Shown one piece after another: positions 2,870 through 13,903 of a stretch of 13,903 nucleotides of DNA; the stretch's first letter is position 1, and the number at the start of each line of letters is the position of its first letter. The DNA is taken from the NCBI GenBank assembly GCA_030638105.1, contig DAOWFF010000041.1, positions 1-13,903 of the forward strand, read 5' to 3'. Source of the DNA: an archaeon (GTDB lineage Archaea > Nanobdellota > Nanobdellia > Pacearchaeales > GW2011-AR1). A program made the position numbers and the translations under genes. The notes under the pieces are model-generated. The model was not told the origin of the DNA and did no database searches. It saw only the letters and a program-made list of their open reading frames with translations.

Positions 2870-3049
2870 ATGTTATTAAGTGATGATATAATCAAAATCA
2901 TGGGAGAGGGAGAACCTCTTAAATTAGAAGATTTAGCGAAAAAAACAAATCTAAATCATAAAATCGGATATTTTAAAGAATATGTTGAATCATTGGTAGA
3001 GAGCAATTTATTAAAATATAATCGGGAAACAGGAGAGTATAGTTTATAA
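2870..3049 (+). CDS. Small winged-helix-like protein, 59 aa, between uL23 and uL2
   Basis: This short frame starts one base after the uL23 stop (TAAAATG) and ends one base before the uL2 start (again TAAAATG). The 59 residues read like a minimal winged helix: helix 1 around SDDIIKIMGEG, helix 2 in KLEDLAKKTNLN, a long third helix HKIGYFKEYVESLVESNLL, and a short wing KYNRETGEYSL. This layout is shared by MarR/ArsR-like DNA-binding domains and by domains used only for protein contacts. It is acidic overall (about 11 acidic to 8 basic residues), the opposite of its ribosomal neighbours. No paralogue or known ribosomal protein matches it. It could be a regulator of the operon or an accessory factor; the fold assignment rests on sequence pattern alone. 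Confidence 0.75.
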   Translation: MLLSDDIIKIMGEGEPLKLEDLAKKTNLNHKIGYFKEYVESLVESNLLKYNRETGEYSL

Positions 3050-3050
3050 A

Positions 3051-3749
3051 ATGGGAAAAAGAATAATAACTCAGGCACGGGGAAAAGGAAGCCACACTTA
3101 CAGAGTCAAAAAAAAGGCATTTAGATTTAAACTCCAATATCCAGCAAAACTTTCTGGCGAAGGAACTGTAATAAAATTGTTGGATTCAGCAGCACACAGC
3201 GTCCCGCTCGCAAAAATAAAATATACAGACGGAAGTTTTTATATACCTGCTTTTAAAAATATGGTTGAGGGACAGAAAATAAATTTAAACGCAAAAGAAA
3301 TTAAAGACGGAAACATTGTAAAACTAAAAGACATCCCTTTGAAAACAAAAATTTATGATATTGAATCAAGACCCGGGGACGGCGGAGTTTTCATAAAAAC
3401 AGCAGGGAATTGTGCAGAAATCACAAGGATTGTAGGAGAAAACATTTTTGTTTTAATGCCTTCAAAAAAAGAAAAAAAATTAAACAAAAACTGTCGGGCA
3501 ATTATTGGTGTTACTGCTGGAGCAGGGAGATTAGACAAGCCAGTTGTTAAAGCTGGGAAAAAATTTCATATTAAGAAATCAAAAAGTAAATTATGGCCAA
3601 GGACATCTGCAGTAAAAATGAATGCAATAGACCATCCGTTTGGTTCAGGAAGATCTAAGAATCCAAAAAGCAAGATTGCCAAAAGAAACGCACCACCTGG
3701 AAGAAAAGTTGGATTATTAAGGCCAAGAAGAACTGGTAGGAAAAAATAA
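3051..3749 (+). CDS. rpl2: 50S ribosomal protein uL2
   Basis: uL2 binds 23S rRNA domain IV and is needed for subunit joining and peptidyl transfer. At 232 residues it is slightly shorter than most archaeal versions. The N-terminus (GKRIITQARGKGSHTYRV), the central PGDGGVFIKTAGNCAEI and the C-terminal SAVKMNAIDHPFGSGR and RNAPPGRKVGLLRPRRTGR identify it. The functionally important histidine of the DHPFG motif is present at about residue 195. Two points differ from the usual pattern: the glycine triplet after DHPF reads GSG rather than GGG, and the following loop is lysine/serine-rich. The start follows the winged-helix stop by one base, with no Shine-Dalgarno motif in range (nearest GGAG 15 bases away). 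Confidence 0.97.
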   Translation: MGKRIITQARGKGSHTYRVKKKAFRFKLQYPAKLSGEGTVIKLLDSAAHSVPLAKIKYTDGSFYIPAFKNMVEGQKINLNAKEIKDGNIVKLKDIPLKTKIYDIESRPGDGGVFIKTAGNCAEITRIVGENIFVLMPSKKEKKLNKNCRAIIGVTAGAGRLDKPVVKAGKKFHIKKSKSKLWPRTSAVKMNAIDHPFGSGRSKNPKSKIAKRNAPPGRKVGLLRPRRTGRKK

Positions 3750-3750
3750 A

Positions 3751-4080
3751 ATGGAAAATGAAATAAGTGAAATAAGAAGAGTGGGAAGAATAGAAGACCT
3801 TGAAAAAGGAGAAATCTATATTGCACAATTTGGAGAAAATGATGAAAAGATTTTAGTTTGTTCAGGAATTGTAGGTGGAAGGTATGAATTTTTAGAAAAA
3901 GGAAAACAATTTGGTTCAAATAAGGATATTGAAATTTTAGGATGGCAAACTCCTCCAGGCGGAATAAAATTTTCTTATGGGGGGGAAGTAATAATCAACT
4001 CCCTTTTTAGAAAATTGGAAACATATATCCCAGGACATGGGGGTTATAAAATTAAACGAGATTTAGTATCAGTATTATAA
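3751..4080 (+). CDS. Hypothetical protein, 109 aa, between uL2 and uS19
   Basis: Not recognised. The protein is near neutral and rich in glycine and beta-type sequence (GEIYIAQFGENDEKILVCSG, then GGIKFSYGGEVIINSLFRKL), with a short N-terminal helix; no membrane segment or signal peptide is apparent. One cysteine and one histidine do not form a metal site pattern. The frame is bounded on both sides by TAAAATG junctions: one base after the uL2 stop and one base before uS19. That arrangement, the full-length open frame and the glycine-rich strand-turn pattern argue for a real gene. Its codons end mostly in A or T and CpG is rare (two in 330 bases), unlike uL2 and uS19. It might assist assembly of a neighbouring protein or merely exploit high expression; nothing in the sequence decides this. 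Confidence 0.8.
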   Translation: MENEISEIRRVGRIEDLEKGEIYIAQFGENDEKILVCSGIVGGRYEFLEKGKQFGSNKDIEILGWQTPPGGIKFSYGGEVIINSLFRKLETYIPGHGGYKIKRDLVSVL

Positions 4081-4081
4081 A

Positions 4082-4477
4082 ATGGAATTACAAAAAAAAC
4101 AATTTACATTTAAGGGAAAAACAATAGAAGAACTGAAAACTTTAGATGTTCGGGAATTTACGAAATTTTTGAAGTCAAGGCAGAGAAGAACTGTTTTAAG
4201 AAATTTTCAGGAAATTGAGGATTTCATCAGCAGGTGCAATAAAAAAATTTCTAATAACAAGCCGATAAAAACCCATAAAAGGGATTTGGTAGTGGTTCCA
4301 AAAATGGTCGGCATGAAAATTCAGGTTTATAATGGTCACGCGTTTATATCTTCTGAAATTACAGGAGAAATGTTAGGACACAAGTTCGGAGAGTTCGCCC
4401 CGACAAGAGCAAGAGTAAAACATGGAAGTGCAGGAGTTGGAGCAACTAAGGGTTCAAAATTCAAGGCAAAAAAATAA
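4082..4477 (+). CDS. rps19: 30S ribosomal protein uS19
   Basis: uS19 lies in the head of the small subunit next to uS13 and contacts the A-site finger of the large subunit. The 131-residue product has the archaeal/eukaryotic layout: an N-terminal extension with the RQRRTVLRNF segment (about residues 34-43), then the core IKTHKRDLVVVPKMVGMKIQ and VYNGHAFISSEITGEMLGHK, and a conserved end GEFAPTRARVKHGSAGVGAT. Length is usual for archaea. The start follows the previous stop by one base (TAAAATG) with no GGAG upstream. Downstream a 13-base A/T spacer separates it from uL22, one of the few gaps in the operon. Confidence 0.97.
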   Translation: MELQKKQFTFKGKTIEELKTLDVREFTKFLKSRQRRTVLRNFQEIEDFISRCNKKISNNKPIKTHKRDLVVVPKMVGMKIQVYNGHAFISSEITGEMLGHKFGEFAPTRARVKHGSAGVGATKGSKFKAKK

Positions 4478-4490
4478 AATTAAAAATAAA

Positions 4491-5105
4491 ATGACAAACA
4501 CAGAAAAACCAACAACAAAAACAGAGCAAAAAAAACAAAGCATAGTTAAAACTCCAGTAAAAAAACCAGAAGTAAAAAATATTCCTAAGACCATAGAAAA
4601 AAAAATAACCCCCAAAGAAAAGGAAACAAAATCTGATGATAAAAAAGAAAAACCACAAAAACCAATTCAAAAAAAACCAGTTGTTAAAAAAGAATACGCT
4701 GTTGTAAACGCAACGGGTTTACCAATTTCTACAAAGACATCTGTGGCAATTTGCAAATTCATTAAAAACAAAAAAATTAATCAGGCAATAGCCGACTTAG
4801 AAAATGTTGTCTTGACAAAAAAATCCGTCCCCATGAAAGGAGAAATTCCTCACAGAAAAGGCAAGGGTGCGATGTCTGGAAGGTTTCCAAAAAATGCTTC
4901 AGAACATTTTATAAATTTATTGAAAACCCTTCGGTCAAATGCAAACGCAAATGAAATTGACTCTCCAATAATCAAACAGGCAATGGCAAACCTCGCTTCA
5001 AGACCTTATGGAAGATTCGGAAGAATAAAAAGAAAAAGAACTCACGTAAAAATTATGGTCAAAGAAAAAAAATTAAACAAAAAAGAAAATAAGAAAAACA
5101 AATAA
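4491..5105 (+). CDS. rpl22: 50S ribosomal protein uL22 with long N-terminal extension
   Basis: uL22 spans the large subunit and its hairpin lines the exit tunnel. The family core begins around residue 67 (KEYAVVNATGLPISTKTSVA) and continues through VPMKGEIPHRKGKGAMSGRF, where the tunnel-hairpin region lies, to RPYGRFGRIKRKRTHVKIMV. The first 65 or so residues are a low-complexity Lys/Pro/Thr/Glu tail that ordinary archaeal uL22 proteins lack. I chose the ATG at 4491 (204 residues); an earlier ATG at 4422 in the same frame would overlap uS19 by more than 50 bases and add a segment encoded by the uS19 C-terminus in another frame. No Shine-Dalgarno motif precedes the start. The tail is either a disordered rRNA-binding arm or a lineage-specific addition. 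Confidence 0.95.
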   Translation: MTNTEKPTTKTEQKKQSIVKTPVKKPEVKNIPKTIEKKITPKEKETKSDDKKEKPQKPIQKKPVVKKEYAVVNATGLPISTKTSVAICKFIKNKKINQAIADLENVVLTKKSVPMKGEIPHRKGKGAMSGRFPKNASEHFINLLKTLRSNANANEIDSPIIKQAMANLASRPYGRFGRIKRKRTHVKIMVKEKKLNKKENKKNK

Positions 5106-5106
5106 A

Positions 5107-5430
5107 ATGCAAACAAAAATTAATTTTACAGAATTAGAAAGTTTAGAAGATTTAGGTGCAGTTATAGAAGGAGATGTTTTTAAAACAGACATGGGGGATG
5201 TTGCTTATTTTGCAGAGGAAAATGGAATGAGAGAATTTATTATGCCAAGTGTTTCTGGAAGAATTAATTCGTATTCTCTTCAAATTGGAAAAGAAGGGAG
5301 AGTAATGTCAAATGGGGGATTAATGTTTAATCCCCTTGATTTAGTTTTCAAAACCTATTCTCCAGAAAAAGAGGGTTATTGGAAGAGAAAATCTATGCTA
5401 AATAAATTAAATTTAAGAAGTAAATTATAA
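5107..5430 (+). CDS. Hypothetical protein, 107 aa, between uL22 and uS3
   Basis: Not recognised. The N-terminal half is acidic (TELESLEDLGAVIEGDVFKT, then DMGDVAYFAEENGMREF); the C-terminal end is basic (KRKSMLNKLNLRSKL), so overall charge is near zero. The middle contains strand-like segments separated by Gly/Asn/Ser turns (SGRINSYSLQIGKEGRVMSN). No membrane segment, signal peptide, cysteine or known motif is visible. TAAAATG junctions bound it on both sides, as for the 109-residue gene, but the two proteins show no convincing similarity. CpG is almost absent (one in 324 bases). The polarised charge, acidic first and basic last, could allow contact with a basic ribosomal protein and rRNA, but this is speculation. 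Confidence 0.8.
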   Translation: MQTKINFTELESLEDLGAVIEGDVFKTDMGDVAYFAEENGMREFIMPSVSGRINSYSLQIGKEGRVMSNGGLMFNPLDLVFKTYSPEKEGYWKRKSMLNKLNLRSKL

Positions 5431-5431
5431 A

Positions 5432-6097
5432 ATGGAAGAAAGAAATGTAGTCAAGGCGAAAAAAGAAGAATTTGCCATAAAGGAATCTGTCAAAAAATCA
5501 CTTGGAAAAGGAAAGGTAAGCGGAGTTAGAATAGAATACACGCCTGTTGGAACAAAGATAATTGTTTCCACACACAAACCTGGTTTGGTGATTGGAAGAA
5601 AAGGAGAAAGAATAGAAGAATTAACAACAGAAATTAAAAAAAATTTCAAACTTGAAAATCCCCACATTGAGATAGATGAAATAACAGAGCCAGAATTTGA
5701 CGCTCAGATAAATGCAGATGAAATTGCTTCAACTTTAGAAAGGTTCGGACCTTTAAGATTTAAAAGCACTGCTTACAGAACTCTGCAAAAAATAATTGAT
5801 GCTGGTGCATTGGGAGTAGAAATAAGATTAGGCGGAAAGCTTCCTGGTTCAAGAGCCAAAAGCTGGAGATTTAGTCAGGGGTATTTGAAAAAGGCAGGAG
5901 AGCCAGCAAAGATGGTTAGTTTTGCACAAGCAAGGGCACAAACAAAACCCGGAACAGTGGGCGTTAAAGTAAGCATACTTTCCCCACACATTCAGTTAAA
6001 AGACAGAGTAAAAATTGACGACGCACTTATCGAAAAATTAAAAAAGAATTTAGCAGAAGCAGAACAAGAAGAAGAATTAAATAAAGTTAAAAAATAA
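5432..6097 (+). CDS. rps3: 30S ribosomal protein uS3
   Basis: uS3 forms part of the mRNA entry channel in the small-subunit head. The 221-residue protein has a type II KH domain in its N-terminal half, with the nucleic-acid-binding GRKG loop at residues 55-58 inside GLVIGRKGERIEEL. The C-terminal domain contains GALGVEIRLGGKLPGSRAKS and a typical stretch around FSQGYLKKAGEPAKMVSFAQ. Length is within the archaeal range. Start and stop are both at TAAAATG junctions (with the 107-residue gene before and uL29 after), and no GGAG lies upstream. The C-terminal 30 residues are rich in lysine and glutamate. Confidence 0.97.
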   Translation: MEERNVVKAKKEEFAIKESVKKSLGKGKVSGVRIEYTPVGTKIIVSTHKPGLVIGRKGERIEELTTEIKKNFKLENPHIEIDEITEPEFDAQINADEIASTLERFGPLRFKSTAYRTLQKIIDAGALGVEIRLGGKLPGSRAKSWRFSQGYLKKAGEPAKMVSFAQARAQTKPGTVGVKVSILSPHIQLKDRVKIDDALIEKLKKNLAEAEQEEELNKVKK

Positions 6098-6098
6098 A

Positions 6099-6305
6099 AT
6101 GCCATCATTAAAATATAAAGATATAAAAAAAATGAACAAAGAAGATATAGAGAAAAAACTAAAAGAACTGAAATTAGAACTTGTAAAATCAAAAGTGCAC
6201 ACATCTAAAACAGGAAGTTCAAAAATAAAAGAAATAAAAAAAATGATTGCAAAAATACTTACATTCAACAAATCTAATAAAACAGAAGATAAGTTGAAAA
6301 GTTAA
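6099..6305 (+). CDS. rpl29: 50S ribosomal protein uL29
   Basis: A 68-residue, mostly helical protein matching uL29, which binds near the exit tunnel beside uL23. The first helix contains KYKDIKKMNKEDIEKKLKEL followed by KLELVKSKV; after a short loop (HTSKTGSSK) the second helix reads IKEIKKMIAKILTF, the expected archaeal two-helix pattern. Its position between uS3 and aIF1 is the conserved archaeal one. It starts one base after the uS3 stop (TAAAATG). The C-terminal 14 residues are a polar tail. Low sequence complexity makes similarity alone weak, but position and length together make the call firm. Confidence 0.93.
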   Translation: MPSLKYKDIKKMNKEDIEKKLKELKLELVKSKVHTSKTGSSKIKEIKKMIAKILTFNKSNKTEDKLKS

Positions 6306-6308
6306 CCA

Positions 6309-6605
6309 ATGGAAATATGTCCAAAATGTGGCCTGCCTACGCAGGCCTGTGTATGCGAACAGATTGTGAAAAGTTCGCAAAGAATAAAAATAACAACAGA
6401 CCGAAAAAGATACGGGAAAATAGTAACTGTTGTTACAGGATTTGGAAGCGGAATCAGCGTGAAAGATATCGCAAAAACTCTGAAAAATGAGTTGGCTTGT
6501 GGGGGAACCTACAAAGACGACCTCATAGAACTCCAGGGCGACCACAGAAAAAAGATAAAGCCAATACTGGTCAAACTCGGGTTTGATGAAGAGTTTATTG
6601 ACTAA
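6309..6605 (+). CDS. sui1: Translation initiation factor aIF1 (SUI1 family)
   Basis: aIF1 binds the 30S platform and helps discriminate the correct start codon. The 98 residues contain an N-terminal zinc knuckle (Cys4, Cys7, Cys14 and Cys16) and a SUI1 domain from about residue 24 with RYGKIVTVVTGFGSGI and the conserved ELACGGTYKDDLIELQGDHR. This zinc-knuckle form next to uL29 is typical of archaea. The start lies three bases after the uL29 stop (TAACCAATG), without GGAG upstream. Two oddities stand out: codons 8-13 form a perfect GC-rich hairpin that replaces the usual charged residues between the cysteine pairs, and the RNase P protein gene that commonly follows in archaea is absent. Confidence 0.96.
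   Translation: MEICPKCGLPTQACVCEQIVKSSQRIKITTDRKRYGKIVTVVTGFGSGISVKDIAKTLKNELACGGTYKDDLIELQGDHRKKIKPILVKLGFDEEFID
6330..6347 (+). repeat. GC-rich perfect hairpin inside the aIF1 gene
   Basis: Seven-base arms GGCCTGC (6330-6336) and GCAGGCC (6341-6347) flank the four-base loop CTAC. The element begins 21 bases after the aIF1 start codon, in a region whose surroundings are strongly A+T-rich. It encodes the residues between the two cysteine pairs of the zinc knuckle and uses G/C-ending codons seldom used nearby. In the mRNA it would form a stable stem-loop close to the start codon. It may act on translation, or may be the footprint of a small palindromic repeat. Confidence 0.6.
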
Positions 6606-6628
6606 GCATACACAAAAACAAAATCAAA

Positions 6629-6988
6629 ATGACAGAAAAAGTGAGAAACAAACAAAAAGAAAAAAAACCAGAATTAGTGGAAACTGGATGCAACGACAAA
6701 AATTGTCATGTTCACGGAAATTTAAAAACTCGGGGGAGGACTTTCAAGGGAAAAGTTATCAGGAAGTTCCACAAAAGAATCACAATTGAATTTGAAAGAA
6801 TGATTTATATAAGAAAATATGAAAGATACGCAAAGTCAAGAACAAAAATCCACGCACGGCTCCCTGTTTGTATGGAAGACAAAATTAATGTGGGGGATTT
6901 AGTAAAAATTCAAGAATGTAGACCATTGAGTAAAATAATTCATTTTGCGGTCTTAGGAAAAATTAAAGACAAGGAGGATGGGAAATGA
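6629..6988 (+). CDS. rps17: 30S ribosomal protein uS17
   Basis: uS17 is a primary 16S rRNA-binding protein of the small-subunit body. The 119-residue product has the archaeal signature CNDKNCHVHGNLKTRGRTFK (residues 21-40), with Cys21, Cys26 and His28, followed by the OB-fold strands (GKVIRKFHKRITIEFERMIY) and a C-terminal INVGDLVKIQECRPLSKI. The first 18 residues are a polar, lysine-rich extension. It is preceded by the longest gap in the operon (6606-6628), which contains no Shine-Dalgarno motif and is where many archaea carry the RNase P Rpp29 gene. Its stop overlaps the next start (ATGA). Confidence 0.97.
   Translation: MTEKVRNKQKEKKPELVETGCNDKNCHVHGNLKTRGRTFKGKVIRKFHKRITIEFERMIYIRKYERYAKSRTKIHARLPVCMEDKINVGDLVKIQECRPLSKIIHFAVLGKIKDKEDGK
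6973..6977 (+). promoter_or_regulatory. Strong Shine-Dalgarno site of the 86-aa gene
   Basis: GGAGG lies seven bases before the ATG at 6985, inside the end of uS17. It is a full five-base match to the archaeal anti-Shine-Dalgarno sequence, stronger than the motifs of most ribosomal genes here. It supports the 86-residue frame as a translated gene. Confidence 0.8.
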
Positions 6989-7245
6989 TTGGTGAGAAAG
7001 ACATTAGAAATATTTATAAAACGACTTACGAGATTGCGAAGTTGGTTGGAAATGGAGAATATACAAGAGAGATTGGATATAAACTTCATGTTCTGTTTGG
7101 AAGCAGTATCCAACAAACTTTAAGAGAAGAACATTGTTCTCAACCAGAATCAAAAAATTTGGCAATGGTAATCATACAAGTAAATGAGCAAGAATACTCT
7201 AAATTTAGAAAATTAGCAAGAAGACAGGAGGAAAGTGAAAAATGA
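6985..7245 (+). CDS. Hypothetical protein, 86 aa, between uS17 and uL14
   Basis: Not recognised. The sequence is predicted largely helical: DIRNIYKTTYEIAKLVGNGE, then EIGYKLHVLFGSSIQQTLRE, and a C-terminal helix EQEYSKFRKLARRQEESEK, with one strand (LAMVIIQV) between. Charge is about neutral. One Cys-His pair (HCSQ) does not make a recognisable metal site. The start overlaps the uS17 stop (ATGA) and the end overlaps the uL14 start (ATGA), with a strong GGAGG seven bases before its start and another GGAGG within its 3' end serving uL14. This tight double coupling is good evidence that it is translated with both neighbours. It occupies a place where no standard archaeal operon has a gene. It shows no resemblance to Rpp29. 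Confidence 0.82.
   Translation: MIGEKDIRNIYKTTYEIAKLVGNGEYTREIGYKLHVLFGSSIQQTLREEHCSQPESKNLAMVIIQVNEQEYSKFRKLARRQEESEK
7227..7231 (+). promoter_or_regulatory. Shine-Dalgarno site of uL14
   Basis: GGAGG ten bases before the uL14 ATG at 7242, located within the last codons of the 86-residue gene. The uL14 ribosome-binding site therefore lies inside the intercalated gene, and that gene could not be removed cleanly without affecting it. Confidence 0.75.
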
Positions 7246-7643: not shown

Positions 7644-7644
7644 A

Positions 7645-7917
7645 ATGGCATTTCAAATAGATTATGATGCACTTAAAGAAGGGTTCAAAGAAAGGATAAA
7701 AAGTTCTCTTAATGCATTAGAAGTTGTTGCTGAACAATTATCAGACCCATTAGTACATGGAGAATATGTTACAGAATATCTCAAAACAAGAAAAGATGCA
7801 ATAAAGGGAAGTAATTTAAGCAGGGGAGAAATAAAAGAATTTGATGAAAAAGCTATAGAATATATGTTACAATTTTATGGCAGGATGATTAAACTTCGGG
7901 GTATAGAAATAAAATGA
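7645..7917 (+). CDS. Hypothetical helical protein, 90 aa, between uL14 and uL24
   Basis: Not recognised. Nearly the whole protein looks alpha-helical: YDALKEGFKERIKSSLNALE, VVAEQLSDPLVHGEYVTEYL, then EIKEFDEKAIEYMLQFYGRM. This would suit a small three- or four-helix bundle. Charges balance (about 16 acidic, 15 basic); there is no cysteine and no hydrophobic stretch long enough for a membrane. It begins one base after the uL14 stop (TAAAATG) and overlaps the uL24 start by ATGA. Only one CpG is present in 273 bases. Helical bundles of this size are common among dedicated chaperones and small regulators, but no family motif is visible, so a function cannot be named. Confidence 0.8.
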   Translation: MAFQIDYDALKEGFKERIKSSLNALEVVAEQLSDPLVHGEYVTEYLKTRKDAIKGSNLSRGEIKEFDEKAIEYMLQFYGRMIKLRGIEIK

Positions 7918-8381
7918 AAAATAAATTTAGCAAATCATGGAAATCAAGCAAGCAACCTCGGAAGCAGAGGAAATATTTAGCAAATGCTCCATTGCATATT
8001 CGGAAAAAATTTGTTAGTGTGAATTTGTCAAAGGAACTTCGGAAAAAATACAAGCGAAGAAATATTCCTGTAAGAAAAAACGATATTGTAAAAATTATGA
8101 GAGGAAAATTTAAAGCCAAGCAGGGAAAAATTATTGAAGTGAAATTAAAAATTTCAAAAGTTGTTGTTGAAGGAATTCAGGTTAAAAAACAAGACGGCTC
8201 AAAAGTGAGCATAAAATTGCAACCTTCAAATTTGCAAATCATTGAATTAAATTTAGAAGACAGAAAACGAATGAAAAAATTAGGAACAAAAGAAAACAAA
8301 GAAAGTAAAAATAAAAAACCAGAACCAAAAGAAATAAAAGTTAAAGAAAAGCCAAATAAAAATATGGAGAAACAAAAATGA
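7914..8381 (+). CDS. rpl24: 50S ribosomal protein uL24 with charged C-terminal tail
   Basis: uL24 starts large-subunit assembly by binding 23S rRNA domain I. The N-terminal archaeal segment (SWKSSKQPRKQRKYLANAPL followed by HIRKKFVSVNLS) precedes a KOW motif region at about residues 53-80, with VRKNDIVKIMRGKFKAKQGK. The family domain ends near residue 120 (LEDRKRMKKLG). Residues 121-155 form an additional low-complexity Lys/Glu/Pro tail, which makes the protein longer than most archaeal versions. The start overlaps the 90-residue gene (ATGA) without GGAG in range. The stop overlaps a 40-codon frame (ATGA) that stands before eS4. Confidence 0.96.
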   Translation: MKNKFSKSWKSSKQPRKQRKYLANAPLHIRKKFVSVNLSKELRKKYKRRNIPVRKNDIVKIMRGKFKAKQGKIIEVKLKISKVVVEGIQVKKQDGSKVSIKLQPSNLQIIELNLEDRKRMKKLGTKENKESKNKKPEPKEIKVKEKPNKNMEKQK

Positions 8382-8500
8382 AAATTCAAATAATTAAATT
8401 AGCAGGATTGCCCTCGTGCGATTTCCGACGGATTGCAAGAAAGAAATCGCTTAACCGCAAAGGAAGGGAAAATCCAAAAAAACCGCTTAGGTTGTTTTGA
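8378..8500 (+). CDS. Possible 40-aa basic micropeptide between uL24 and eS4
   Basis: A 40-codon frame starts at an ATGA overlap with the uL24 stop, with GGAG (8366-8369) eight bases upstream, and ends two bases before the eS4 ATG. The product (MKIQIIKLAGLPSC at the start, RRIARKKSLNRKGRENPKKP later) is strongly basic, unlike the other intercalated proteins, and would suit rRNA binding. I know no ribosomal protein that matches. Against it: the frame is short, and positions 8401-8460 are about half G+C with a perfect 8-base inverted repeat, so the stretch may be an RNA element or an insertion that happens to be open. The start context favours translation; real function is uncertain. Confidence 0.5.
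   Translation: MKIQIIKLAGLPSCDFRRIARKKSLNRKGRENPKKPLRLF
8418..8450 (+). repeat. Inverted repeat within a local G+C peak
   Basis: GCGATTTC (8418-8425) is repeated in inverted form as GAAATCGC (8443-8450), giving an 8-base-pair stem with a 17-base loop. The surrounding 60 bases are about half G+C in a region near one third. It lies within the 40-codon frame between uL24 and eS4. It may form a stem-loop in the mRNA just ahead of the eS4 start. Confidence 0.5.
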
Positions 8501-8502
8501 AA

Positions 8503-9153
8503 ATGAGTTATCTAAAAAGACAAAGCATTCCGAAAAAATGGTCATTGCATAGAAAGGGCACAAAATATGTAGTAAAGCCAAGTTTTAGTGTTCAAGACGG
8601 AGTTCCGATTTTAATCATCTTGAGAGACATATTAGAGATAGCACAGAACAGAAGAGAAGTAAAAAAAGCAATCCGAGAAAAAAATATTTTGCTTAACAAC
8701 AGAATAGTCAAAGACGAAAAACACAACGCCTTGTTGTTTGATACAATTTCAATTATCCCCTCAAAAAAACATTACCGACTTGAATTATCCGACAAAGGGA
8801 AATTTAAATTAATAGAAATAAATGCTGGTGAATCAACGCAAAAAATATCAAAAATCATAAACAAAAAAATTCTTAAAGGAAAAAAAACACAGTTAAACTT
8901 GAGCGACGGCAAGAACTTTTTGTCAGATATTAAATGCAAAGTTAATGACTCTGTTTTAATAGATTTGAAACAAGGAAAAATTTTAAAATGCCTGTCATTA
9001 AAAGAAAAAGCAAAAGTTGTTGTTTTTGCAGGAAAACATTCAGGAGAAATAGGAATTATAAACAAAATAAATTTAGAAAGAAAAATGGCTGACTTAAGTG
9101 AAGAAGGAAAAAAAGTTGATGTTTTAATTAAACAATTAATGGTGGTTGAATAA
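8503..9153 (+). CDS. rps4e: 30S ribosomal protein eS4
   Basis: eS4 is an archaeal/eukaryotic small-subunit protein absent from bacteria. The 216-residue product starts with the family-like SYLKRQSIPKKWSLHRKGTK and continues with a region resembling the S4 RNA-binding domain (REVKKAIREKNILLNNRIVK, residues about 51-70), a central domain and a C-terminal KOW-like segment (KAKVVVFAGKHSGEIGIINK, residues about 169-188). It is a little shorter than typical archaeal versions. I chose the ATG at 8503: an in-frame TTG at 8497 would add two residues and has no better ribosome-binding site. Three residues beyond this ATG begin the conserved LKR motif. The stop overlaps the next start (TAATG). Confidence 0.95.
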   Translation: MSYLKRQSIPKKWSLHRKGTKYVVKPSFSVQDGVPILIILRDILEIAQNRREVKKAIREKNILLNNRIVKDEKHNALLFDTISIIPSKKHYRLELSDKGKFKLIEINAGESTQKISKIINKKILKGKKTQLNLSDGKNFLSDIKCKVNDSVLIDLKQGKILKCLSLKEKAKVVVFAGKHSGEIGIINKINLERKMADLSEEGKKVDVLIKQLMVVE

Positions 9154-9410
9154 TGAAAAATAGAAACCCACAAATACTTAGTCGTATAGGGGAAGAAGTT
9201 TCATATAATGGAATGTCTGGAACACTTGGATTGGATAAGAGAGAATTACCGCATTTAAGTAAAATAGAGAAAGAATTATCTGGGGGGCTTTTTGTAGTGG
9301 ATAGAGAAGGGAAAAAATATCCCATTCATTCAGAAGGATATGGAAGAAGCCCTTCAAGATTTCATGAATACTGCACAATAAATGATCTTGGAGAAATTGA
9401 AGATAAATAA
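9153..9410 (+). CDS. Hypothetical protein, 85 aa, between eS4 and uL5
   Basis: Not recognised. The protein contains glycine-rich turns and short strands (RIGEEVSYNGMSGTLGLDKR, then LSGGLFVVDREGKKYPIHSE), and then an aromatic/arginine-rich patch (GYGRSPSRFHEYCTINDLGE). Charges balance and there is no membrane segment. The spacing of the glycines and strands suggests a small beta barrel or ribbon, but no motif is assignable. The ATG shares one base with the eS4 stop (TAATG); the frame ends at a TAAAATG junction with uL5. The nearest upstream purine motif is a weak GGTGG. The exact fit between eS4 and uL5 and the mid-length open frame support a real gene. Confidence 0.78.
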   Translation: MKNRNPQILSRIGEEVSYNGMSGTLGLDKRELPHLSKIEKELSGGLFVVDREGKKYPIHSEGYGRSPSRFHEYCTINDLGEIEDK

Positions 9411-9411
9411 A

Positions 9412-9963
9412 ATGACAGAAGAAACAAAAACAAAAGTGAAAGAGCAAACGACAAAGAAAGACAAATCCCAAAATCCTCTTTGGAAAATAAAAATCGAGAA
9501 AGTTGTTTTAAGTGTAGGCGGAATTGGAGATGAATTAGAAAAGGGCTTTAAACTTCTTAAGTTACTGACCCAAAGGAAGCCGGCAAAAATGAAATCTAAA
9601 AAAAGAATTCCTTCTCTTGGGGTTAAACCTGGTTTAGAAGTCGGTGCAGTTGTAACTATTCGGAAAAATCCAGAGGAAACTTTGAAAAAAATGTTAATAG
9701 CAATAGACAATGTTTTAAAGAAAAAACAAGTAGCAGAAAATAATTTTTCGTTTGGTTTAAAAGAATACATCGAAATCCCAGGCGTAGAATACCAAAGAGA
9801 AATAGGAATTAAGGGCTTTGATGTTACAGTTGTTTTCAAAAGAGCCGGAAGAAGAGTTAAACTGAAAAAAATAAAAAAGGGTAAAATCCCTAAAAGACAA
9901 GCAATCTCTCCCCAAGAAATAATTAAATTTATGGAAGATAAATTCCAGACAGAGTTTAAATAA
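9412..9963 (+). CDS. rpl5: 50S ribosomal protein uL5
   Basis: uL5 holds the 5S rRNA in the central protuberance and contacts P-site tRNA. The core begins near residue 22 (PLWKIKIEKVVLSVGGIG) and includes LTQRKPAKMKSKKRIPSLGV, PGLEVGAVVTIR and EYIEIPGVEYQREIGIKGFD, all typical of archaeal uL5. The first 20 residues are a polar Lys/Glu/Thr extension. I chose the ATG at 9412 (183 residues), which stands one base after the previous stop (TAAAATG). An upstream in-frame start at 9382 would overlap the 85-residue gene and has no family support. No GGAG lies in range; the nearest is about 17 bases away. Confidence 0.96.
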   Translation: MTEETKTKVKEQTTKKDKSQNPLWKIKIEKVVLSVGGIGDELEKGFKLLKLLTQRKPAKMKSKKRIPSLGVKPGLEVGAVVTIRKNPEETLKKMLIAIDNVLKKKQVAENNFSFGLKEYIEIPGVEYQREIGIKGFDVTVVFKRAGRRVKLKKIKKGKIPKRQAISPQEIIKFMEDKFQTEFK

Positions 9964-9964
9964 A

Positions 9965-10195: not shown

Positions 10196-10196
10196 A

Positions 10197-10577
10197 ATGA
10201 GTCAAGATATCGTCGCTGATGCACTGAACATGATACAGAACGCAAAGAAAGCTAAAAAGGAAACTATAACAATTAGCAGGATTTCAAATTTGCTGGTTGA
10301 GGTCTTAAAAATTATGAAACAAAAAGGAGCCATAGCAAAATACAAATTTAATGCCAAAGAAAAATCAATTATCGCAACAATCGGCGAACTTTCTGAATGC
10401 AAGGCAATCAAACCACGGTTTAGTGTGAACAAGTCCCAGATTGAAAAATACCGACGGAGATATCTGCCTGCAAGAAACTTTGGAACTTTAATCATCTCAA
10501 CAAACAACGGCTTGATGACCCATGAAGAAGCTCAGGAAGAACAAACAGGAGGATGCTTGATTGCGTATTTTTATTAA
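10197..10577 (+). CDS. rps8: 30S ribosomal protein uS8
   Basis: uS8 is a primary binder of 16S rRNA helix 21 and, in bacteria, a regulator of the spc operon. The 126-residue product matches the archaeal form: SQDIVADALNMIQNAKKAKK at the N-terminus, SNLLVEVLKIMKQKGAIAKY, KAIKPRFSVNKSQIEKYRRR, then YLPARNFGTLIISTNNGLMT and the conserved end EAQEEQTGGCLIAYFY. The ATG at 10197 follows the uS14 stop by one base. A longer version starting at 10161 would overlap uS14 and has no family match. No GGAG lies upstream. The junction with uL6 is again TAAAATG. Confidence 0.97.
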   Translation: MSQDIVADALNMIQNAKKAKKETITISRISNLLVEVLKIMKQKGAIAKYKFNAKEKSIIATIGELSECKAIKPRFSVNKSQIEKYRRRYLPARNFGTLIISTNNGLMTHEEAQEEQTGGCLIAYFY

Positions 10578-10578
10578 A

Positions 10579-11121
10579 ATGAAAAAAGAATTACAACAAA
10601 CAATTGAAATTCCAGAAGGAATAGAAATTAATTTAGAAGAGAATGAACTTTCAGTTAAAGGAGAGCACGGCGAAAATAAAAGAAAGTTTAATTTTGGAAA
10701 ACTTGATGTTGAAAAAAAAGATAATAAAATAATTATTGGAAACAAGAAATCGACAAAAAGAGAAAAGAAACTGATGAACACAATTGTCGCCCACATCAAT
10801 AATATGATTAAAGGAGTTCAGGAAAAATTTGAATATAAACTAAAAATTTGTTTCAGCCATTTTCCTTTTAGCGTTGAAGTTCAGGGAAATCAAGCCACAA
10901 TCAAAAACTTTTTAGGAGAAAAAATTCCAAGAAAATTGCAAATCCTTGAGGGCGTTGAGGTCAAAATTGAAAAAGAAATCATCACAATAAATTCAATAAA
11001 TAAAGAATTAGCAGGACAGACCGCAGCGAATTTTGAAAAAGCAACAAGAATAACAAACAGGGACAGGAGAATTTTTCAGGACGGAATTTTCATTACAAAT
11101 AAACCAGGAGTAGAAATATAA
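10579..11121 (+). CDS. rpl6: 50S ribosomal protein uL6
   Basis: uL6 lies near the sarcin-ricin loop and the factor-binding site. The 180 residues show the two-domain layout of the family: IEIPEGIEINLEENELSVKG opens the first domain; NTIVAHINNMIKGVQEKFEY and then KLKICFSHFPFSVEVQG link to the second, which ends with QTAANFEKATRITNRDRRIF and QDGIFI. The ATG at 10579 starts one base after the uS8 stop (TAAAATG). An in-frame TTG at 10561 inside uS8 adds six residues without support. The stop shares one base with the eL32 start (TAATG). Confidence 0.96.
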   Translation: MKKELQQTIEIPEGIEINLEENELSVKGEHGENKRKFNFGKLDVEKKDNKIIIGNKKSTKREKKLMNTIVAHINNMIKGVQEKFEYKLKICFSHFPFSVEVQGNQATIKNFLGEKIPRKLQILEGVEVKIEKEIITINSINKELAGQTAANFEKATRITNRDRRIFQDGIFITNKPGVEI

Positions 11122-11546
11122 TGCCGAAATTTTTAAGAAGAACTTCAAATAGATATTCAAAATTAGGAAAAAGAAGAAAAAAGAAACAGGTCTGGAGAAA
11201 GCCGACAGGAAGAGACAACAAGATGAGAGAAAAAAGAAAGGGCTATCCTGCAGTCGTGAAAATTGGTTACAAAAAATCCGAGCACAAATCTTTTTCAATA
11301 ATTAAAAATATTGAAGATTTAAAAAAGATTCAAAATAATGAATCTGTTATTCTCGGTAAAATTGGAAAAAAGAAAAAAATAGAAATTTTGAAAAAAGCCA
11401 AAGAAATGAAAATTAAAATTTATAAAATAAACATTGAAAAATTTTTAAAAGAAAATGAAAAGAAAAATAAAAAAGAAAAAGTCGAAGAAGTAAAAGATAA
11501 AAAACAAATTAAAACTAAAGATAAATTAAAGGAGAAGAAAAAATGA
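11121..11546 (+). CDS. rpl32e: 50S ribosomal protein eL32 with lysine-rich tail
   Basis: eL32 is an archaeal/eukaryotic large-subunit protein. The family core is unmistakable: FLRRTSNRYSKLGKRRKKKQ, VWRKPTGRDNKMREKRKGYP and AVVKIGYKK, then the domain with IEDLKKIQNNESVILGKIGK and ILKKAKEMKIKIYKINIEKF. The last 30 residues (from about residue 111) are almost only Lys and Glu with a few other polar residues, so the C-terminus is likely disordered. The start overlaps the uL6 stop by one base with GGAG at 11107-11110, ten bases upstream. The stop overlaps the eL19 start (ATGA). Confidence 0.95.
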   Translation: MPKFLRRTSNRYSKLGKRRKKKQVWRKPTGRDNKMREKRKGYPAVVKIGYKKSEHKSFSIIKNIEDLKKIQNNESVILGKIGKKKKIEILKKAKEMKIKIYKINIEKFLKENEKKNKKEKVEEVKDKKQIKTKDKLKEKKK

Positions 11547-11950
11547 ACCTAAGAAATAAAAAATTATTAGCAAGAAGAACTTTTAACATCGGCAAGAGAA
11601 GAATTGTTTTTTTCAGCTCGCGGTTAGATGAAATAAAAGAAGCAATCACTAAACAGGATATGCGCGATTTACAAAAAGATGGAGCAATACTTGTAAAAGA
11701 AATTAAAGGAAGGAAAAAAGTTAAGAAACGAGTTGGAAAAAAAAGTCCAGGAAATATAAGAAAAAAAGTGAACAAAAGAAAAGAAGAATATGTTATAATG
11801 ACAAGAAAATTAAGAAAATATGTCGCTGAATTAAAAAAACAGGGAAAATTATCCCGTGAAGAAGTTATTGATATTCGGAAAAAAATAAGAAATAAATTTT
11901 TTAAAAGTAAAGCAAATCTAAAAAATTATATTGGAGAATTAGAAAAATGA
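11543..11950 (+). CDS. rpl19e: 50S ribosomal protein eL19
   Basis: eL19 is an archaeal/eukaryotic large-subunit protein made of long helices that runs along 23S rRNA and can bridge to the small subunit. The 135 residues contain the typical NLRNKKLLARRTFNIGKRRI, followed by AITKQDMRDLQKDGAILVKE, the basic linker with KKSPGNIRKKVNKRKEE, and the helix REEVIDIRKKIRNKFFKSKA. It is slightly shorter than the usual 145-150 residues, ending soon after the second long helix. GGAG at 11531-11534 lies eight bases before the start, which overlaps the eL32 stop (ATGA). The stop overlaps the uL18 start (ATGA). Confidence 0.96.
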   Translation: MNLRNKKLLARRTFNIGKRRIVFFSSRLDEIKEAITKQDMRDLQKDGAILVKEIKGRKKVKKRVGKKSPGNIRKKVNKRKEEYVIMTRKLRKYVAELKKQGKLSREEVIDIRKKIRNKFFKSKANLKNYIGELEK

Positions 11951-12447
11951 AAACATTAAAACAAAGAAGAAAACAAAATAAAACCGATTACGGAAAAAGA
12001 ATTAAATTACTTAAAAGTGGAACGCCGAGAATTGTTTTTAGAAAAACAAACAATTATATTCTTGTTCAGTATGTTACAAGCAAACAAGCCCAAGATAAAA
12101 TTGAATTCGGATTGAACTCAGGGGAATTGCTGAAATTCGGGTGGCCAGAGGATTTTAAAAGAAGTTTAAAATCAATTCCTGCAACATATTTAACTGGATT
12201 TTTAACAGGGAAAAAAATTATCGCAAAAAAATTAAAGACCCCGATTGTTGATTTTGGAATGATTAGAACTTTGCACAAAACAAAAACCCACGCGTTTTTA
12301 AAAGGTCTGATAGACGCTGGAATTGAAATGAAACACAAGGAAGAAACATTTCCAGATCAGGATACAATAAAAGGTAAACACATGAAAAAAGATTTTTCAA
12401 AAATATTTGAAGAAATTAAATCTAAAATAGAGAATAAGAATGGATAA
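11947..12447 (+). CDS. rpl18: 50S ribosomal protein uL18
   Basis: uL18 binds 5S rRNA together with uL5 in the central protuberance. The 166-residue archaeal form begins with RRKQNKTDYGKRIKLLKSGT and PRIVFRKTNNYILVQYV, includes the conserved SIPATYLTGFLTGKKIIAKK, then FGMIRTLHKTKTHAFLKGLI and DAGIEM, and ends with a segment containing IKGKHMKKDFSKIFEEI. It is shorter than many archaeal homologues of about 190 residues. GGAG at 11933-11936 lies ten bases before the start. The 3' end overlaps the uS5 start by eight bases (ATGGATAA), the longest overlap in the operon. Confidence 0.96.
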   Translation: MKTLKQRRKQNKTDYGKRIKLLKSGTPRIVFRKTNNYILVQYVTSKQAQDKIEFGLNSGELLKFGWPEDFKRSLKSIPATYLTGFLTGKKIIAKKLKTPIVDFGMIRTLHKTKTHAFLKGLIDAGIEMKHKEETFPDQDTIKGKHMKKDFSKIFEEIKSKIENKNG

Positions 12448-13204
12448 AGAAAAAAAACCAGTTGAAGAAAAAGTTTTGGTAAAAAAAGAAATTGAAAAAG
12501 GGAAAACTGATAGAGGTAGAAGAAAAACTCCTTGGAAAAAGCAGGAAAAAACAAGAGAAGAAAAAATTTCAGAATGGGTTCCGAAAACAAAACTTGGAAA
12601 AGAAGTAAAAGAAAAGAAGATAAAAAATATTGATGAAATTTTAAAAGACGAAAGAAAAATTCTTGAAGCAGAAATTGTTGACGCTTTGATAAATGTTCAG
12701 TCAGAATTAATTTCTATTGGACAGGCAAAAGGAAAATTCGGCGGAGGGAAAAGAAGAATTTGGAGACAGACCCAGAGAAAAACAAAAGAAGGAAACATTC
12801 CAAGTTTTTCAACACTTGCAGTTGTCGGCGATGAAAATAGTCATGTTGGAATTGGCGTCGGGAAATCCAAAGAGACCTTGCCGGCAAAAGACAAGGCAAT
12901 AAGAAAAGCAAAACTAAATATCCTCAAAGTAACAAGAGCGTGTGCGGGTTTTGACTGTGCCTGTTCAGAATTGCATTCTATTCCATTCAGGGTAACTGGA
13001 AAATCCGGAAGCGTCAAAGTAACTTTAATCCCTGCACCACAAGGAACAGGTCTGGTCGTGGCAAACGAACTAAAAAAAATATTAAAACTTGCAGGAATTA
13101 AAGATGTTTACAGCCAGACATTTGGAAAGCAAAGAACAACTTTTAATTTAGTCAAGGCATGTATTGAAGCATTGAAAAAAACAAATAGGGAGGAGAAAAA
13201 ATGA
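12440..13204 (+). CDS. rps5: 30S ribosomal protein uS5
   Basis: uS5 forms part of the mRNA entry and proofreading region of the small subunit. The 254 residues include an N-terminal Lys/Glu extension of about 44 residues, the linker WVPKTKLGKEVKEKKIKNID, the RNA-binding first domain (AKGKFGGGKRRIWRQTQRKT and GNIPSFSTLAVVGDENSHVG) and the second domain with FDCACSELHSIPFRVTGKSG followed by SVKVTLIPAPQGTGLVVANE. Archaeal homologues are usually 210-235 residues, so the N-terminal extension accounts for the excess. The start overlaps uL18 by eight bases and lacks a clear GGAG. The stop overlaps the next frame (ATGA). Confidence 0.97.
   Translation: MDKEKKPVEEKVLVKKEIEKGKTDRGRRKTPWKKQEKTREEKISEWVPKTKLGKEVKEKKIKNIDEILKDERKILEAEIVDALINVQSELISIGQAKGKFGGGKRRIWRQTQRKTKEGNIPSFSTLAVVGDENSHVGIGVGKSKETLPAKDKAIRKAKLNILKVTRACAGFDCACSELHSIPFRVTGKSGSVKVTLIPAPQGTGLVVANELKKILKLAGIKDVYSQTFGKQRTTFNLVKACIEALKKTNREEKK
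13189..13193 (+). promoter_or_regulatory. Strong Shine-Dalgarno site of the 68-aa gene
   Basis: GGAGG seven bases before the ATG at 13201, inside the end of uS5. This full match supports translation of the small frame between uS5 and uL30. Confidence 0.75.
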
Positions 13205-13407
13205 ATGATGAAACTACAAAACCACATGAAGATTTAGTGAGGGAAGGATATTGCAGAATGAATCATGATGTATTAACTGAATCAGAGAGAGGAAAATTTC
13301 CGGGATTTTTGAAAGCAAGATTTAACAAAAGAAAAATAGAATCAATAGTATTTAAAGTGGATGATTTAGGTTGTGATGCTTATGTTAAATGGGGGAAATT
13401 CAAATGA
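13201..13407 (+). CDS. Hypothetical protein, 68 aa, between uS5 and uL30
   Basis: Not recognised. The product is a small, slightly basic protein with an acidic N-terminus (NDETTKPHEDLVREGYCRMN, then HDVLTESERG) and a strand-rich end (KRKIESIVFKVDDLGCDAYV). Two cysteines and two histidines lie too far apart to suggest a standard zinc motif. The start overlaps the uS5 stop (ATGA) with a strong GGAGG seven bases upstream, and the stop overlaps the uL30 start (ATGA). Its coupling on both sides mirrors that of the 86-residue gene. CpG is nearly absent (one in 207 bases). The GYCRMNHDVLTESERGKFPG segment reads like a conserved loop, so the protein may belong to a small lineage-specific family, but that is an impression only. 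Confidence 0.78.
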   Translation: MNDETTKPHEDLVREGYCRMNHDVLTESERGKFPGFLKARFNKRKIESIVFKVDDLGCDAYVKWGKFK

Positions 13408-13826
13408 TAGCAGTAATTAGAATTCACGGCATGGTAAAAATCAAGAAAAAAATAGAAGAGACATTGCAAAGATTACGACTTAGAAGAAAATATGCTTGTG
13501 TGGTTTTACAGCCGACAAAAGTTAATCTTGGAATGATAAAAAATGTTCGGGACTTTGTTGCGTTCGGCGAAATAAACAAAGAGACATTTGAAAAACTAAT
13601 TGAAGAACGGGGTCAAGCAATAAACAAGAAAAAAAAGATTGACGCGAAAAAAATAATTGTGGATTTGGAAGCAGGAAAAAAATATCAGGACTTGAATTTA
13701 AAGCCGTTTTTCAGGTTGCACCCCCCAAGAAAAGGAATTGACAGCAAAAAACATTTTGGAGTTAACAAAGGTGTTTTAGGAGACAACAAGGAAAAAATAA
13801 ATGAGCTGATTGGGAGGATGTTGTAA
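13404..13826 (+). CDS. rpl30: 50S ribosomal protein uL30
   Basis: uL30 is a large-subunit protein; the archaeal form is longer than the bacterial one. The 140 residues begin with the typical IAVIRIHGMVKIKKKIEETL and LRLRRKYACVVLQPTKVNLG, followed by MIKNVRDFVAFGEINKETFE and a C-terminal extension ending in FFRLHPPRKGIDSKKHFGVN and KGVLGDNKEKINELIGRML. This matches archaeal uL30 closely. The ATG at 13404 overlaps the preceding stop (ATGA); an earlier in-frame start at 13389 lies within the 68-residue gene and would add five unrelated residues. The stop shares one base with the next start (TAATG). uL15, normally next, is not visible. Confidence 0.96.
   Translation: MIAVIRIHGMVKIKKKIEETLQRLRLRRKYACVVLQPTKVNLGMIKNVRDFVAFGEINKETFEKLIEERGQAINKKKKIDAKKIIVDLEAGKKYQDLNLKPFFRLHPPRKGIDSKKHFGVNKGVLGDNKEKINELIGRML
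13813..13817 (+). promoter_or_regulatory. Shine-Dalgarno site of the NUDIX-like gene
   Basis: GGAGG eight bases before the ATG at 13826, located in the last codons of uL30. It supports the start chosen for the partial gene at the right edge. Confidence 0.7.
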
Positions 13827-13903
13827 TGGAGGGAAAATATATTGTTGCTTCAGGACCAGTAATTATTGAGGAAGGAAAATTGTTAGTTAATAAAGATGAT
13901 AAA
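13826..13903 (+). CDS. Partial gene, probably NUDIX hydrolase N-terminus
   Basis: Twenty-six codons are visible before the window ends. The segment YIVASGPVIIEEGKLLVNKD resembles the first strands of NUDIX domains, which hydrolyse nucleoside diphosphates linked to another moiety; the pattern of a hydrophobic strand, Gly, a second strand with a Glu-Gly turn and a Leu-Leu strand is typical. The diagnostic NUDIX box lies beyond the window, so the call is tentative. The ATG shares one base with the uL30 stop (TAATG), with GGAGG eight bases upstream. In most archaea uL15 would stand here, so this is another non-ribosomal gene inserted in the operon. Confidence 0.5.
   Translation, partial: MEGKYIVASGPVIIEEGKLLVNKDDK

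What the first reader, a model, noticed from the sequence alone, without database searches (positions are those of the whole stretch)
2870..13903. Nine non-ribosomal frames threaded through a ribosomal protein superoperon
Small genes of 59, 109, 107, 86, 90, 40, 85 and 68 codons, plus a NUDIX-like start, each sit exactly between two ribosomal genes that are normally adjacent in archaea. From uS17 to uL5 they alternate one by one with ribosomal genes, whereas uL5 through uS5 has none. They are coupled to their neighbours by overlap or one-base gaps. Those of 59 to 109 residues are near neutral or acidic and none of the eight complete ones belongs to a family I recognise. They could be dedicated assembly chaperones, ribosome-associated factors or expression hitchhikers. 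The set is the best candidate here for an undescribed system.
Basis: partly seen in the sequence, partly recalled or inferred. Interest (0 to 1): 0.85.

Follow-up and report, generated by a model that had tools for sequence, protein, structure and literature searches.

The report
Wandering guest genes in ribosomal operons
In one family of tiny archaea the ribosomal-protein operon, normally among the most conserved gene strings in a genome, is sprinkled with small unknown genes that fit exactly between ribosomal genes and differ from one close relative to the next.

Summary
The window is a whole contig of a Pacearchaeota-type genome. Seven of the eight complete frames (I1-I5, I7, I8) look like real, translationally coupled genes. 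The 40-codon frame (I6) is not a protein: it lies on a dispersed 86-nt element that here ends at the eS4 start. The ninth is cut by the contig end; its NUDIX label is untested. A dedicated ribosome system is not supported: none of the eight is found in 80 related operons. Other operons of this family carry their own ~100-aa genes: 263 of 2016 junctions in 107 operons. Seven operon pairs with 85-96% identical ribosomal proteins and any guests share none, yet guest number is similar in near relatives. In 20 genomes of 19 other families 16 of 400 junctions are filled, 13 of them at the usual RNase P subunit site. In one insert-rich genome guests fill 10 of 27 tight translation-operon junctions against 1 of 48 elsewhere. 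Two guest families recur at different junctions and in transporter operons. Best explanation: fast-turnover, fast-evolving guest genes using ribosomal operons for promoterless, growth-coupled expression; their roles remain unknown.

The parts
2870..3049 (+). I1, guest gene, 59 aa, between uL23 and uL2 (gaps +1/+1); weak winged-helix similarity
   Evidence: no match in 80 operons
3751..4080 (+). I2, guest gene, 109 aa, between uL2 and uS19 (+1/+1); finds only itself among 5.8 billion proteins
5107..5430 (+). I3, guest gene, 107 aa, between uL22 and uS3 (+1/+1); probable distant member of a recurrent guest family (S-x-E-D-L..L..G-D motif)
   Evidence: hhalign 34% against a maximum of 5.1% for 431 shuffled decoys
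6985..7245 (+). I4, guest gene, 86 aa, between uS17 and uL14 (-4/-4)
7645..7917 (+). I5, guest gene, 90 aa, between uL14 and uL24 (+1/-4); predicted three-helix bundle; family recurs at uL3|uL4, uL23|uL2, uL14|uL24 and in a transporter operon
8417..8502 (+). I6 re-read: two-hairpin leader-like element ending at the eS4 start codon (ATG 8503); the 40-codon frame over it (8378-8500) is incidental
9153..9410 (+). I7, guest gene, 85 aa, between eS4 (-1) and uL5 (+1 to the likely ATG at 9412)
13201..13407 (+). I8, guest gene, 68 aa, between uS5 and uL30 (-4/-4)
13826..13903 (+). I9, start of a frame after uL30 (overlap 1 nt), cut by the contig end; NUDIX-like label not testable
   Evidence: after uL30, L108 has three small unknown genes and L115 a 2-thiouracil desulfurase domain protein

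Best explanation
I1-I5, I7 and I8 are lineage-specific guest genes. Small, fast-evolving protein genes are repeatedly gained, replaced and lost at the stop-start junctions of ribosomal-protein operons in this archaeal family. Shown: in relatives such inserts fill the junction as coding-strand frames, mostly keep the -4/+1 coupling geometry, carry Shine-Dalgarno-like starts as often as ribosomal genes do, differ between sister operons whose ribosomal genes stay intact, and in one genome are concentrated in translation operons. Inferred: they are co-transcribed and translated with ribosomal proteins, so a gene landing there needs no promoter and gets high, growth-coupled expression (hitchhiking). 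Also inferred: their functions are lineage-specific accessory roles under changing selection rather than ribosome assembly; the few recognisable inserts are HAD, HD, NT5C and MazG-type enzymes, HTH proteins and DEDDh exonucleases. How the genes arrive is not shown.
For: No match of I1-I8 in 80 related operons at E<=1e-2, while each ribosomal protein is found in 63-80. After removal of ribosomal genes wrongly counted in seven rearranged operons: 282 insert frames, 263 of 2016 junctions occupied in 107 operons. Homologous insert at the same junction: 0.2-0.6% of comparisons below 65% ribosomal identity, 1.9-4.7% at 65-80%, 4 of 16 at 80-85%, 0 of 39 above 85%. Insert number, not identity, is similar between near neighbours (Spearman 0.46, n=74; 0.59, n=29). 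Other families: 16 of 400 junctions occupied, 13 at eIF1|uS17 read by eye as Rpp29. G030: 10 of 27 tight translation junctions against 1 of 48 others, p 8.5e-5. Purifying selection for two inserts shared by L030/L042 (pN/pS 0.22, 0.25). Two recurrent families at several junctions, also in transporter operons. Median length 100 aa and median net charge +1 for 198 inserts.
Against: No expression data. Purifying selection was shown clearly for one genome pair; six other guest pairs had pN/pS 0.51-0.73 at high pS, a DEDDh exonuclease pair 0.26. For I1-I8 themselves no close relative exists, so selection on them is untested. L030/L042 (84.6% identical) do share both inserts at one junction, so some guests persist. 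The enrichment rests on one 200-kb stretch with hand-labelled genes. Unknown small genes also flank the chaperonin in the window's genome, and the transporter-operon copies show that ribosomal operons are not the only site. The ten-member uL4|uL23 exonuclease family stays at one junction.
Confidence: 0.6

Rival explanations
1. Dedicated assembly chaperones or ribosome-associated factors: each guest helps make or regulate the ribosomal proteins beside it.
For: Concentration in translation operons; tight coupling. The I5 model resembles bS20-like three-helix proteins only non-significantly (E 0.6, TM 0.6).
Against: No shared guest in the seven operon pairs with 85-96% identical ribosomal proteins and any guests; 31 of 74 near-complete operons have none; the same family occurs at different junctions and in transporter operons; median net charge near neutral.
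Confidence: 0.08
2. A mobile cassette process: an unknown enzyme or microhomology recombination moves gene-sized pieces precisely into coupled stop-start junctions (TAAaATG or ATGA), which become duplicated at both ends.
For: Several empty/occupied pairs show junction to junction-insert-junction; direct repeats at insert ends slightly longer than same-locus controls (6.61 against 6.10, n=185, p 0.028); insert load is similar in near relatives; families hop junctions. Two inserts (L044 eIF1|uS17, L158 uL3|uL4) are accompanied by a 42-nt copy of the upstream gene's end, so some arise with a flank duplication.
Against: No inverted repeats (4.38 against 4.53 control, n=220); the direct-repeat excess is small and the junction sequence is also what coupling requires (-4 and +1 are the commonest empty junctions); some junctions keep no duplicate (L071 uL23|uL2); no recombinase was looked for.
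Confidence: 0.15
3. Young de novo genes or spurious frames: neutral DNA at junctions that happens to be open and turns over without function.
For: At least 171 of 209 inserts match no Pfam family (upper bound of matches from summed counts); I2 and I5 find only themselves in 5.8 billion proteins.
Against: Strand-specific openness 164 against 15 of 171; Shine-Dalgarno-like motifs at host frequency; pN/pS 0.22-0.25 in one pair; a confident three-helix model for I5 (pLDDT 90); recurrent families.
Confidence: 0.1
4. Horizontal exchange of whole operon segments between species brings different guests along with foreign ribosomal genes.
For: L016 and the more distant L020 share a guest family at uL22|uS3, where the sister L017 has an unrelated gene.
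Against: In L016/L017 the ribosomal genes on both sides of the replaced guests (uL22, uS3, uS17, uL14) are 93-97% identical in DNA, with no dip.
Confidence: 0.05

Closest known systems
Genomic hitchhiking in conserved operons (concept recalled from Rogozin and colleagues 2002; nothing of it seen here)
   Same: Functionally unrelated genes reside in ribosomal operons, presumably for their expression mode.
   Different: Hitchhikers as I recall them are conserved genes kept at one site; here they are mostly small orphans, up to 11 per operon, that differ between sister operons.
Gene insertions in the bacterial rpoBC-str-S10-spc-alpha cluster (PMC8046335, passages seen)
   Same: Non-ribosomal genes enter the ribosomal cluster over evolution.
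   Different: The passages report 163 alteration events and a pattern of small gene sets inserted between operons, with known metabolic genes as examples; here single orphans enter most junctions inside the operon.
Integron gene cassettes (recalled)
   Same: Gene-sized units inserted into an expressed array.
   Different: The non-coding margin is 15 nt or less on both sides in 220 of 282 inserts, leaving no room there for an attC-type site; guests occur at all 21 junctions examined.

Membership tests
Ribosomal proteins / ribosome assembly factors | Conserved among close relatives with the same ribosome | tested here: not met
   0 of 80 related operons match I1-I8; seven close pairs share no guest
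Ribosomal proteins / ribosome assembly factors | Match to a known family profile | tested here: not met
   Pfam and NCBIfam, none above cut-off for I1-I8
Ribosomal proteins / ribosome assembly factors | Physical association with ribosomes | not testable with these tools
   needs proteomics
Genomic hitchhiking | Resides inside a highly expressed operon in coupled geometry | tested here: met
   -4/+1 junctions; enrichment 10/27 against 1/48 in one genome; high expression is assumed from the operon's nature
Genomic hitchhiking | No functional link to the host operon | tested here: inconclusive
   Turnover and copies in transporter operons argue for it; function untested
Genomic hitchhiking | Conserved association over long evolution | tested here: not met
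   Among inserts only the ten-member uL4|uL23 exonuclease family behaves so
Integron cassettes / transposable elements | Terminal inverted repeats at the ends | tested here: not met
   4.38 against 4.53 control, n=220
Integron cassettes / transposable elements | Target-site duplication | tested here: inconclusive
   6.61 against 6.10, n=185, p 0.028; two 42-nt flank copies
Integron cassettes / transposable elements | Linked recombinase gene | not tested
   no search was made
Anti-phage defence genes | Match to known defence models | tested here: not met
   209 inserts against PADLOC: ten members match, and only the DEDDh and exonuclease-effector models

The most novel reading that the evidence does not exclude
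This archaeal family has an active, heritable process that delivers gene-sized cassettes precisely into translationally coupled stop-start junctions of translation operons, turning the ribosomal superoperon into a rapidly refreshed expression array for fast-evolving small proteins, perhaps used in conflict with viruses or the host cell.
Probability: 0.15. Interest if true: 0.92.

Novelty: new variant of a known kind. Interest (0 to 1): 0.72.

Why it matters
The S10-spc operon is a textbook case of frozen gene order and a standard phylogenetic marker. Here the order of its ribosomal genes is kept in most operons seen, but its junctions are a turnover zone: no operon pair at 85% or more ribosomal identity shared a guest. 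That gives a countable system for watching genes enter operons, and about 280 small, mostly orphan proteins likely to be well expressed in uncultured archaea. It also warns against inferring function for unknown genes from ribosomal neighbourhood alone.

Tried and rejected
Fixed ribosome-linked system: rejected and the close-pair comparison. I6 as a protein: rejected. Rfam gathering-threshold scan of the window: nothing. Single-sequence folding of the I6 region: z -0.42, no support for structure. Fold searches with the I5 model: no significant match in PDB or viral models. Structure of the I3 family: pLDDT 52, discarded. A viral-contig scan with the I5 family was answered with an error for lack of a conserved stretch, so a viral source is untested. 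PHROGs gave mostly the same enzyme-type inserts plus two families without a stated function. Corrections made on the way: (a) searches counted uS3, uL29 and eIF1 of seven rearranged operons as inserts at uS5|uL30 (20 frames) and two or three frames twice or in those junctions; one search removed them (307 to 282 frames, 270 to 263 occupied junctions) and lowered the Spearman values from 0.49/0.61 to 0.46/0.59; the three apparent shared inserts of L073/L077 were these ribosomal genes. (b) Gene 240 of G030, first counted as an orphan, is eS19 by eye; corrected. (c) One of the 209 inserts scanned is a ribosomal uL3 fragment in L077. The profile A5 also hits PEP-synthase-like proteins weakly in many genomes; I treat that as a shared short motif. 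Names such as Rpp29, eS19, SecE, RpoP-like, L7Ae-like were given by eye. Papers: listings; passages of PMC8046335 and PMC10833476, abstract and outline of PMC7760734; PMC2447332 returned no passage. None of what I saw described the pattern; that is the extent of the search.
Full report
What is there. The window is a complete 13.9-kb contig (C12) of a 442-kb, 75%-complete archaeal genome bin whose named relatives are mostly labelled Candidatus Pacearchaeota or Nanoarchaeota. It holds the archaeal S10-spc operon from uL3 to uL30 on the plus strand. Seven of the eight complete ones have codon scores of 0.16-0.23 nats per codon, within the range of the other genes of the contig (0.09-0.35), and sit at -4, -1 or +1 nt from their neighbours.

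One frame is not a gene. The 40-codon frame I6 lies on a dispersed repeat: 18 of 126 family genomes have a match at E<=1e-6, 43 at E<=0.01, many of those short. In 28 copies aligned the conserved part is a hairpin GCGATTT...AAATCGC, a purine-rich stretch and a second hairpin AACCGCTTAGGTT. At the same junction of L017 the element is shifted relative to I6's frame. A covariance model from 22 copies finds 15 matches at E<=0.01 in the window's genome, 150 of 495 first-look candidates being scored. Of 29 matches examined for context, 20 end within 12 nt of the start of a frame of 45 or more codons and 9 do not; two of the 20 frames are short and doubtful. Read by eye, genes behind them include eS4, uL16, eL43, eL39, uL11, FtsZ, an RpoP-like zinc protein and replication or repair proteins. 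Covariation is weak, one of 11 pairs changing on both sides, and a single-sequence fold of the I6 region is no better than shuffles (z -0.42). I read it as a candidate leader RNA or other 5' element of eS4 (8417-8502).

Are the others found elsewhere? With tblastn at E<=1e-2 none of I1-I8 has a match in 80 related uL14-centred loci, in which each ribosomal protein is found in 63 to 80. I5 matches 1 of 138 family genomes, its own, and I5 and I2 find only themselves among 5.8 billion proteins (that search needs shared five-residue words). With profiles built from several inserts, I5 does have distant relatives (below). No family passes a curated cut-off for I1-I8.

The pattern in relatives. The relatives carry their own inserts. 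I gave 121 operons (80 named, 40 unnamed, the window) to one analysis; 14 duplicates were dropped and 107 kept. A recount removed frames that were ribosomal genes of seven rearranged operons and double counts. It leaves 282 insert frames; 263 of 2016 ribosomal junctions hold at least one. Of 74 operons with at least 19 junctions, 31 have none and the most loaded have 11. In the first 80 loci, 171 gaps of 170-460 bp were open over 85% of their length in 164 cases on the coding strand and 15 on the other. Insert starts have a Shine-Dalgarno-like motif in 124 of 282 cases, host starts at empty junctions in 379 of 1010, internal ATGs in 1289 of 16692. Upstream boundaries are -4 in 103, +1 in 117 and -1 in 20 of 282; downstream -4 in 88, +1 in 64, -1 in 10. 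Junctions differ strongly in occupancy (chi-square 158, 20 d.f.): uL3|uL4 32 of 94, uS17|uL14 29 of 107, uL14|uL24 29 of 107, but uL29|eIF1 1 of 89. For 198 inserts of the first set the median length is 100 aa and the median net charge +1.

Turnover. A homologous insert at the same junction is found in 0.2-0.6% of comparisons below 65% ribosomal-protein identity, in 1.9%, 2.4% and 4.7% of those at 65-70, 70-75 and 75-80%, in 4 of 16 at 80-85% and in 0 of 39 above 85%. Eight operon pairs are at least 85% identical; seven of them have guests in at least one member, and none shares any: L016/L017 (7 and 4 guests), L019/L050 (0, 4), L044/L045 (2, 1), L071/L074 (9, 0), L073/L077 (5, 4), L154/L155 (0, 1), L014/L022 (3, 8). 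Some of these operons are incomplete, so only junctions present in both were compared. Just below, L030/L042 (84.6%) share both inserts at uL14|uL24. L016 and L017 have ribosomal genes 90-97% identical in DNA, yet at uL22|uS3 and uS17|uL14 they carry unrelated genes, and at uL14|uL24 one has a guest where the other has TAAaATG. Of 24 junctions occupied in at least one member of five such pairs, 20 are occupied in one only and 4 in both. The ends of the flanking ribosomal genes are mostly conserved; four upstream ends and two downstream starts fall to 30-base identities of 0.33-0.53. In contrast, the number of guests is similar between near neighbours (Spearman 0.46 for 74 operons, 0.59 for the 29 whose neighbour is above 75% identity). 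Load is similar; identity is not.

Selection. For the two inserts shared by L030/L042, pN/pS is 0.22 and 0.25, against 0.06-0.18 for four ribosomal genes, with pS saturated for the inserts. A DEDDh exonuclease pair gave 0.26; six other guest pairs gave 0.51-0.73 at pS 0.55-0.63, which says little.

Where guests sit. In 200 kb of an insert-rich genome (G030), orphan guests occupy 10 of 27 tight same-strand junctions among hand-labelled translation genes and 1 of 48 elsewhere (Fisher p 8.5e-5). They lie, by eye, in S10-spc, the uL10-P1 and uL1 region, NusG-uL11 and eL31-eL39. In 200 kb of a relative without guests in S10-spc (G055) the comparable orphan I saw is beside SecE. In sampled stretches of two further insert-rich genomes tight small unknown genes are mostly in S10-spc, with a few elsewhere in G043. 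In the window's genome unknown small genes also flank the chaperonin and eL33/uL16 (by eye). In 20 genomes of 19 other families, 16 of 400 junctions are occupied; 13 are a gene between eIF1 and uS17 that I read as Rpp29, leaving 3.

Recurrent guest families. I5 belongs to a family of about ten inserts at uL3|uL4, uL23|uL2 and uL14|uL24. Its profile matches 16 of 126 family genomes at E<=1e-3, model members included, and one copy lies in an ABC-transporter operon. Its model is a three-helix bundle (pLDDT 90) with no significant fold match. I3 is the second-best match of a four-member family (hhalign 34%; best of 431 shuffled decoys 5.1%). A profile of that family finds a member in another transporter operon (E 8.5e-7) and, weakly (E 0.006), one between an L7Ae-like and an eS28-like gene. 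Of 209 inserts scanned, Pfam at E<=1e-4 recognises ten DEDDh exonucleases (the number of the uL4|uL23 family), up to two HAD-type, one HD, one NT5C, two MazG, one or two HTH and two DUF proteins, and one uL3 fragment; a protein may match several models.

Interpretation. A ribosome assembly system should be conserved between sister species; these genes are not. Spurious frames should not be strand-specific, carry ribosome-binding motifs or fall into recurrent families; these do. The best reading is that small, fast-evolving accessory genes repeatedly settle in the coupled junctions of translation operons, where they need no promoter. Whether an enzyme or mere selection places them is open: insert ends show no inverted repeats, a marginal excess of direct repeats, and in two cases a 42-nt copy of the upstream gene's end. 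Their biochemical functions are unknown; I think lineage-specific accessory roles likely, with conflict (viruses, host cell) one untested possibility.

Limits. The genomes are largely metagenome bins; gene labels in G030 and several protein names were given by eye; no expression data exist here; the mechanism of arrival is inferred.

Noticed in passing
window 8417-8502; L269-L282 and relatives: A dispersed 86-nt, two-hairpin element, 15 matches in this genome, in 20 of 29 cases ending near the start of a frame (eS4, uL16, eL43, eL39, RpoP-like and others by eye); no Rfam family matched the window. Candidate new leader RNA.
   Followed up: partly
eIF1|uS17 junction, window 6606-6628 and the family: A gene read by eye as Rpp29 (RNase P subunit) sits here in 13 of 20 other-family genomes, but this junction is occupied in only 1 of 96 operons of the window's family.
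   Followed up: no
uL4|uL23 junction in 10 relatives (e.g. L006:4903-5556): A DEDDh exonuclease of about 210 aa stays at one ribosomal junction in ten relatives, unlike the other inserts.
   Followed up: no
L071, L073, L076, L077, L081, L138, L140 (L068 probably too): Operon rearranged: the uS3-uL29-eIF1 block lies between uS5 and uL30.
   Followed up: partly
L044 eIF1|uS17 and L158 uL3|uL4: The gap with the insert holds a 42-nt copy of the end of the upstream ribosomal gene: a possible trace of how some inserts arise.
   Followed up: partly
L222 and L290 (G022, G039): ABC-transporter/S-layer-like operons carry members of both recurrent guest families, a possible second hot spot.
   Followed up: partly
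L029: Record labelled Patescibacteria group bacterium (KA32) holds an archaeal ribosomal operon of this family: label or binning error.
   Followed up: no
window 507-740, minus strand: 77-aa protein with weak similarity to PHD/HicB-like antitoxins (best E 3.5e-4, below cut-off).
   Followed up: no
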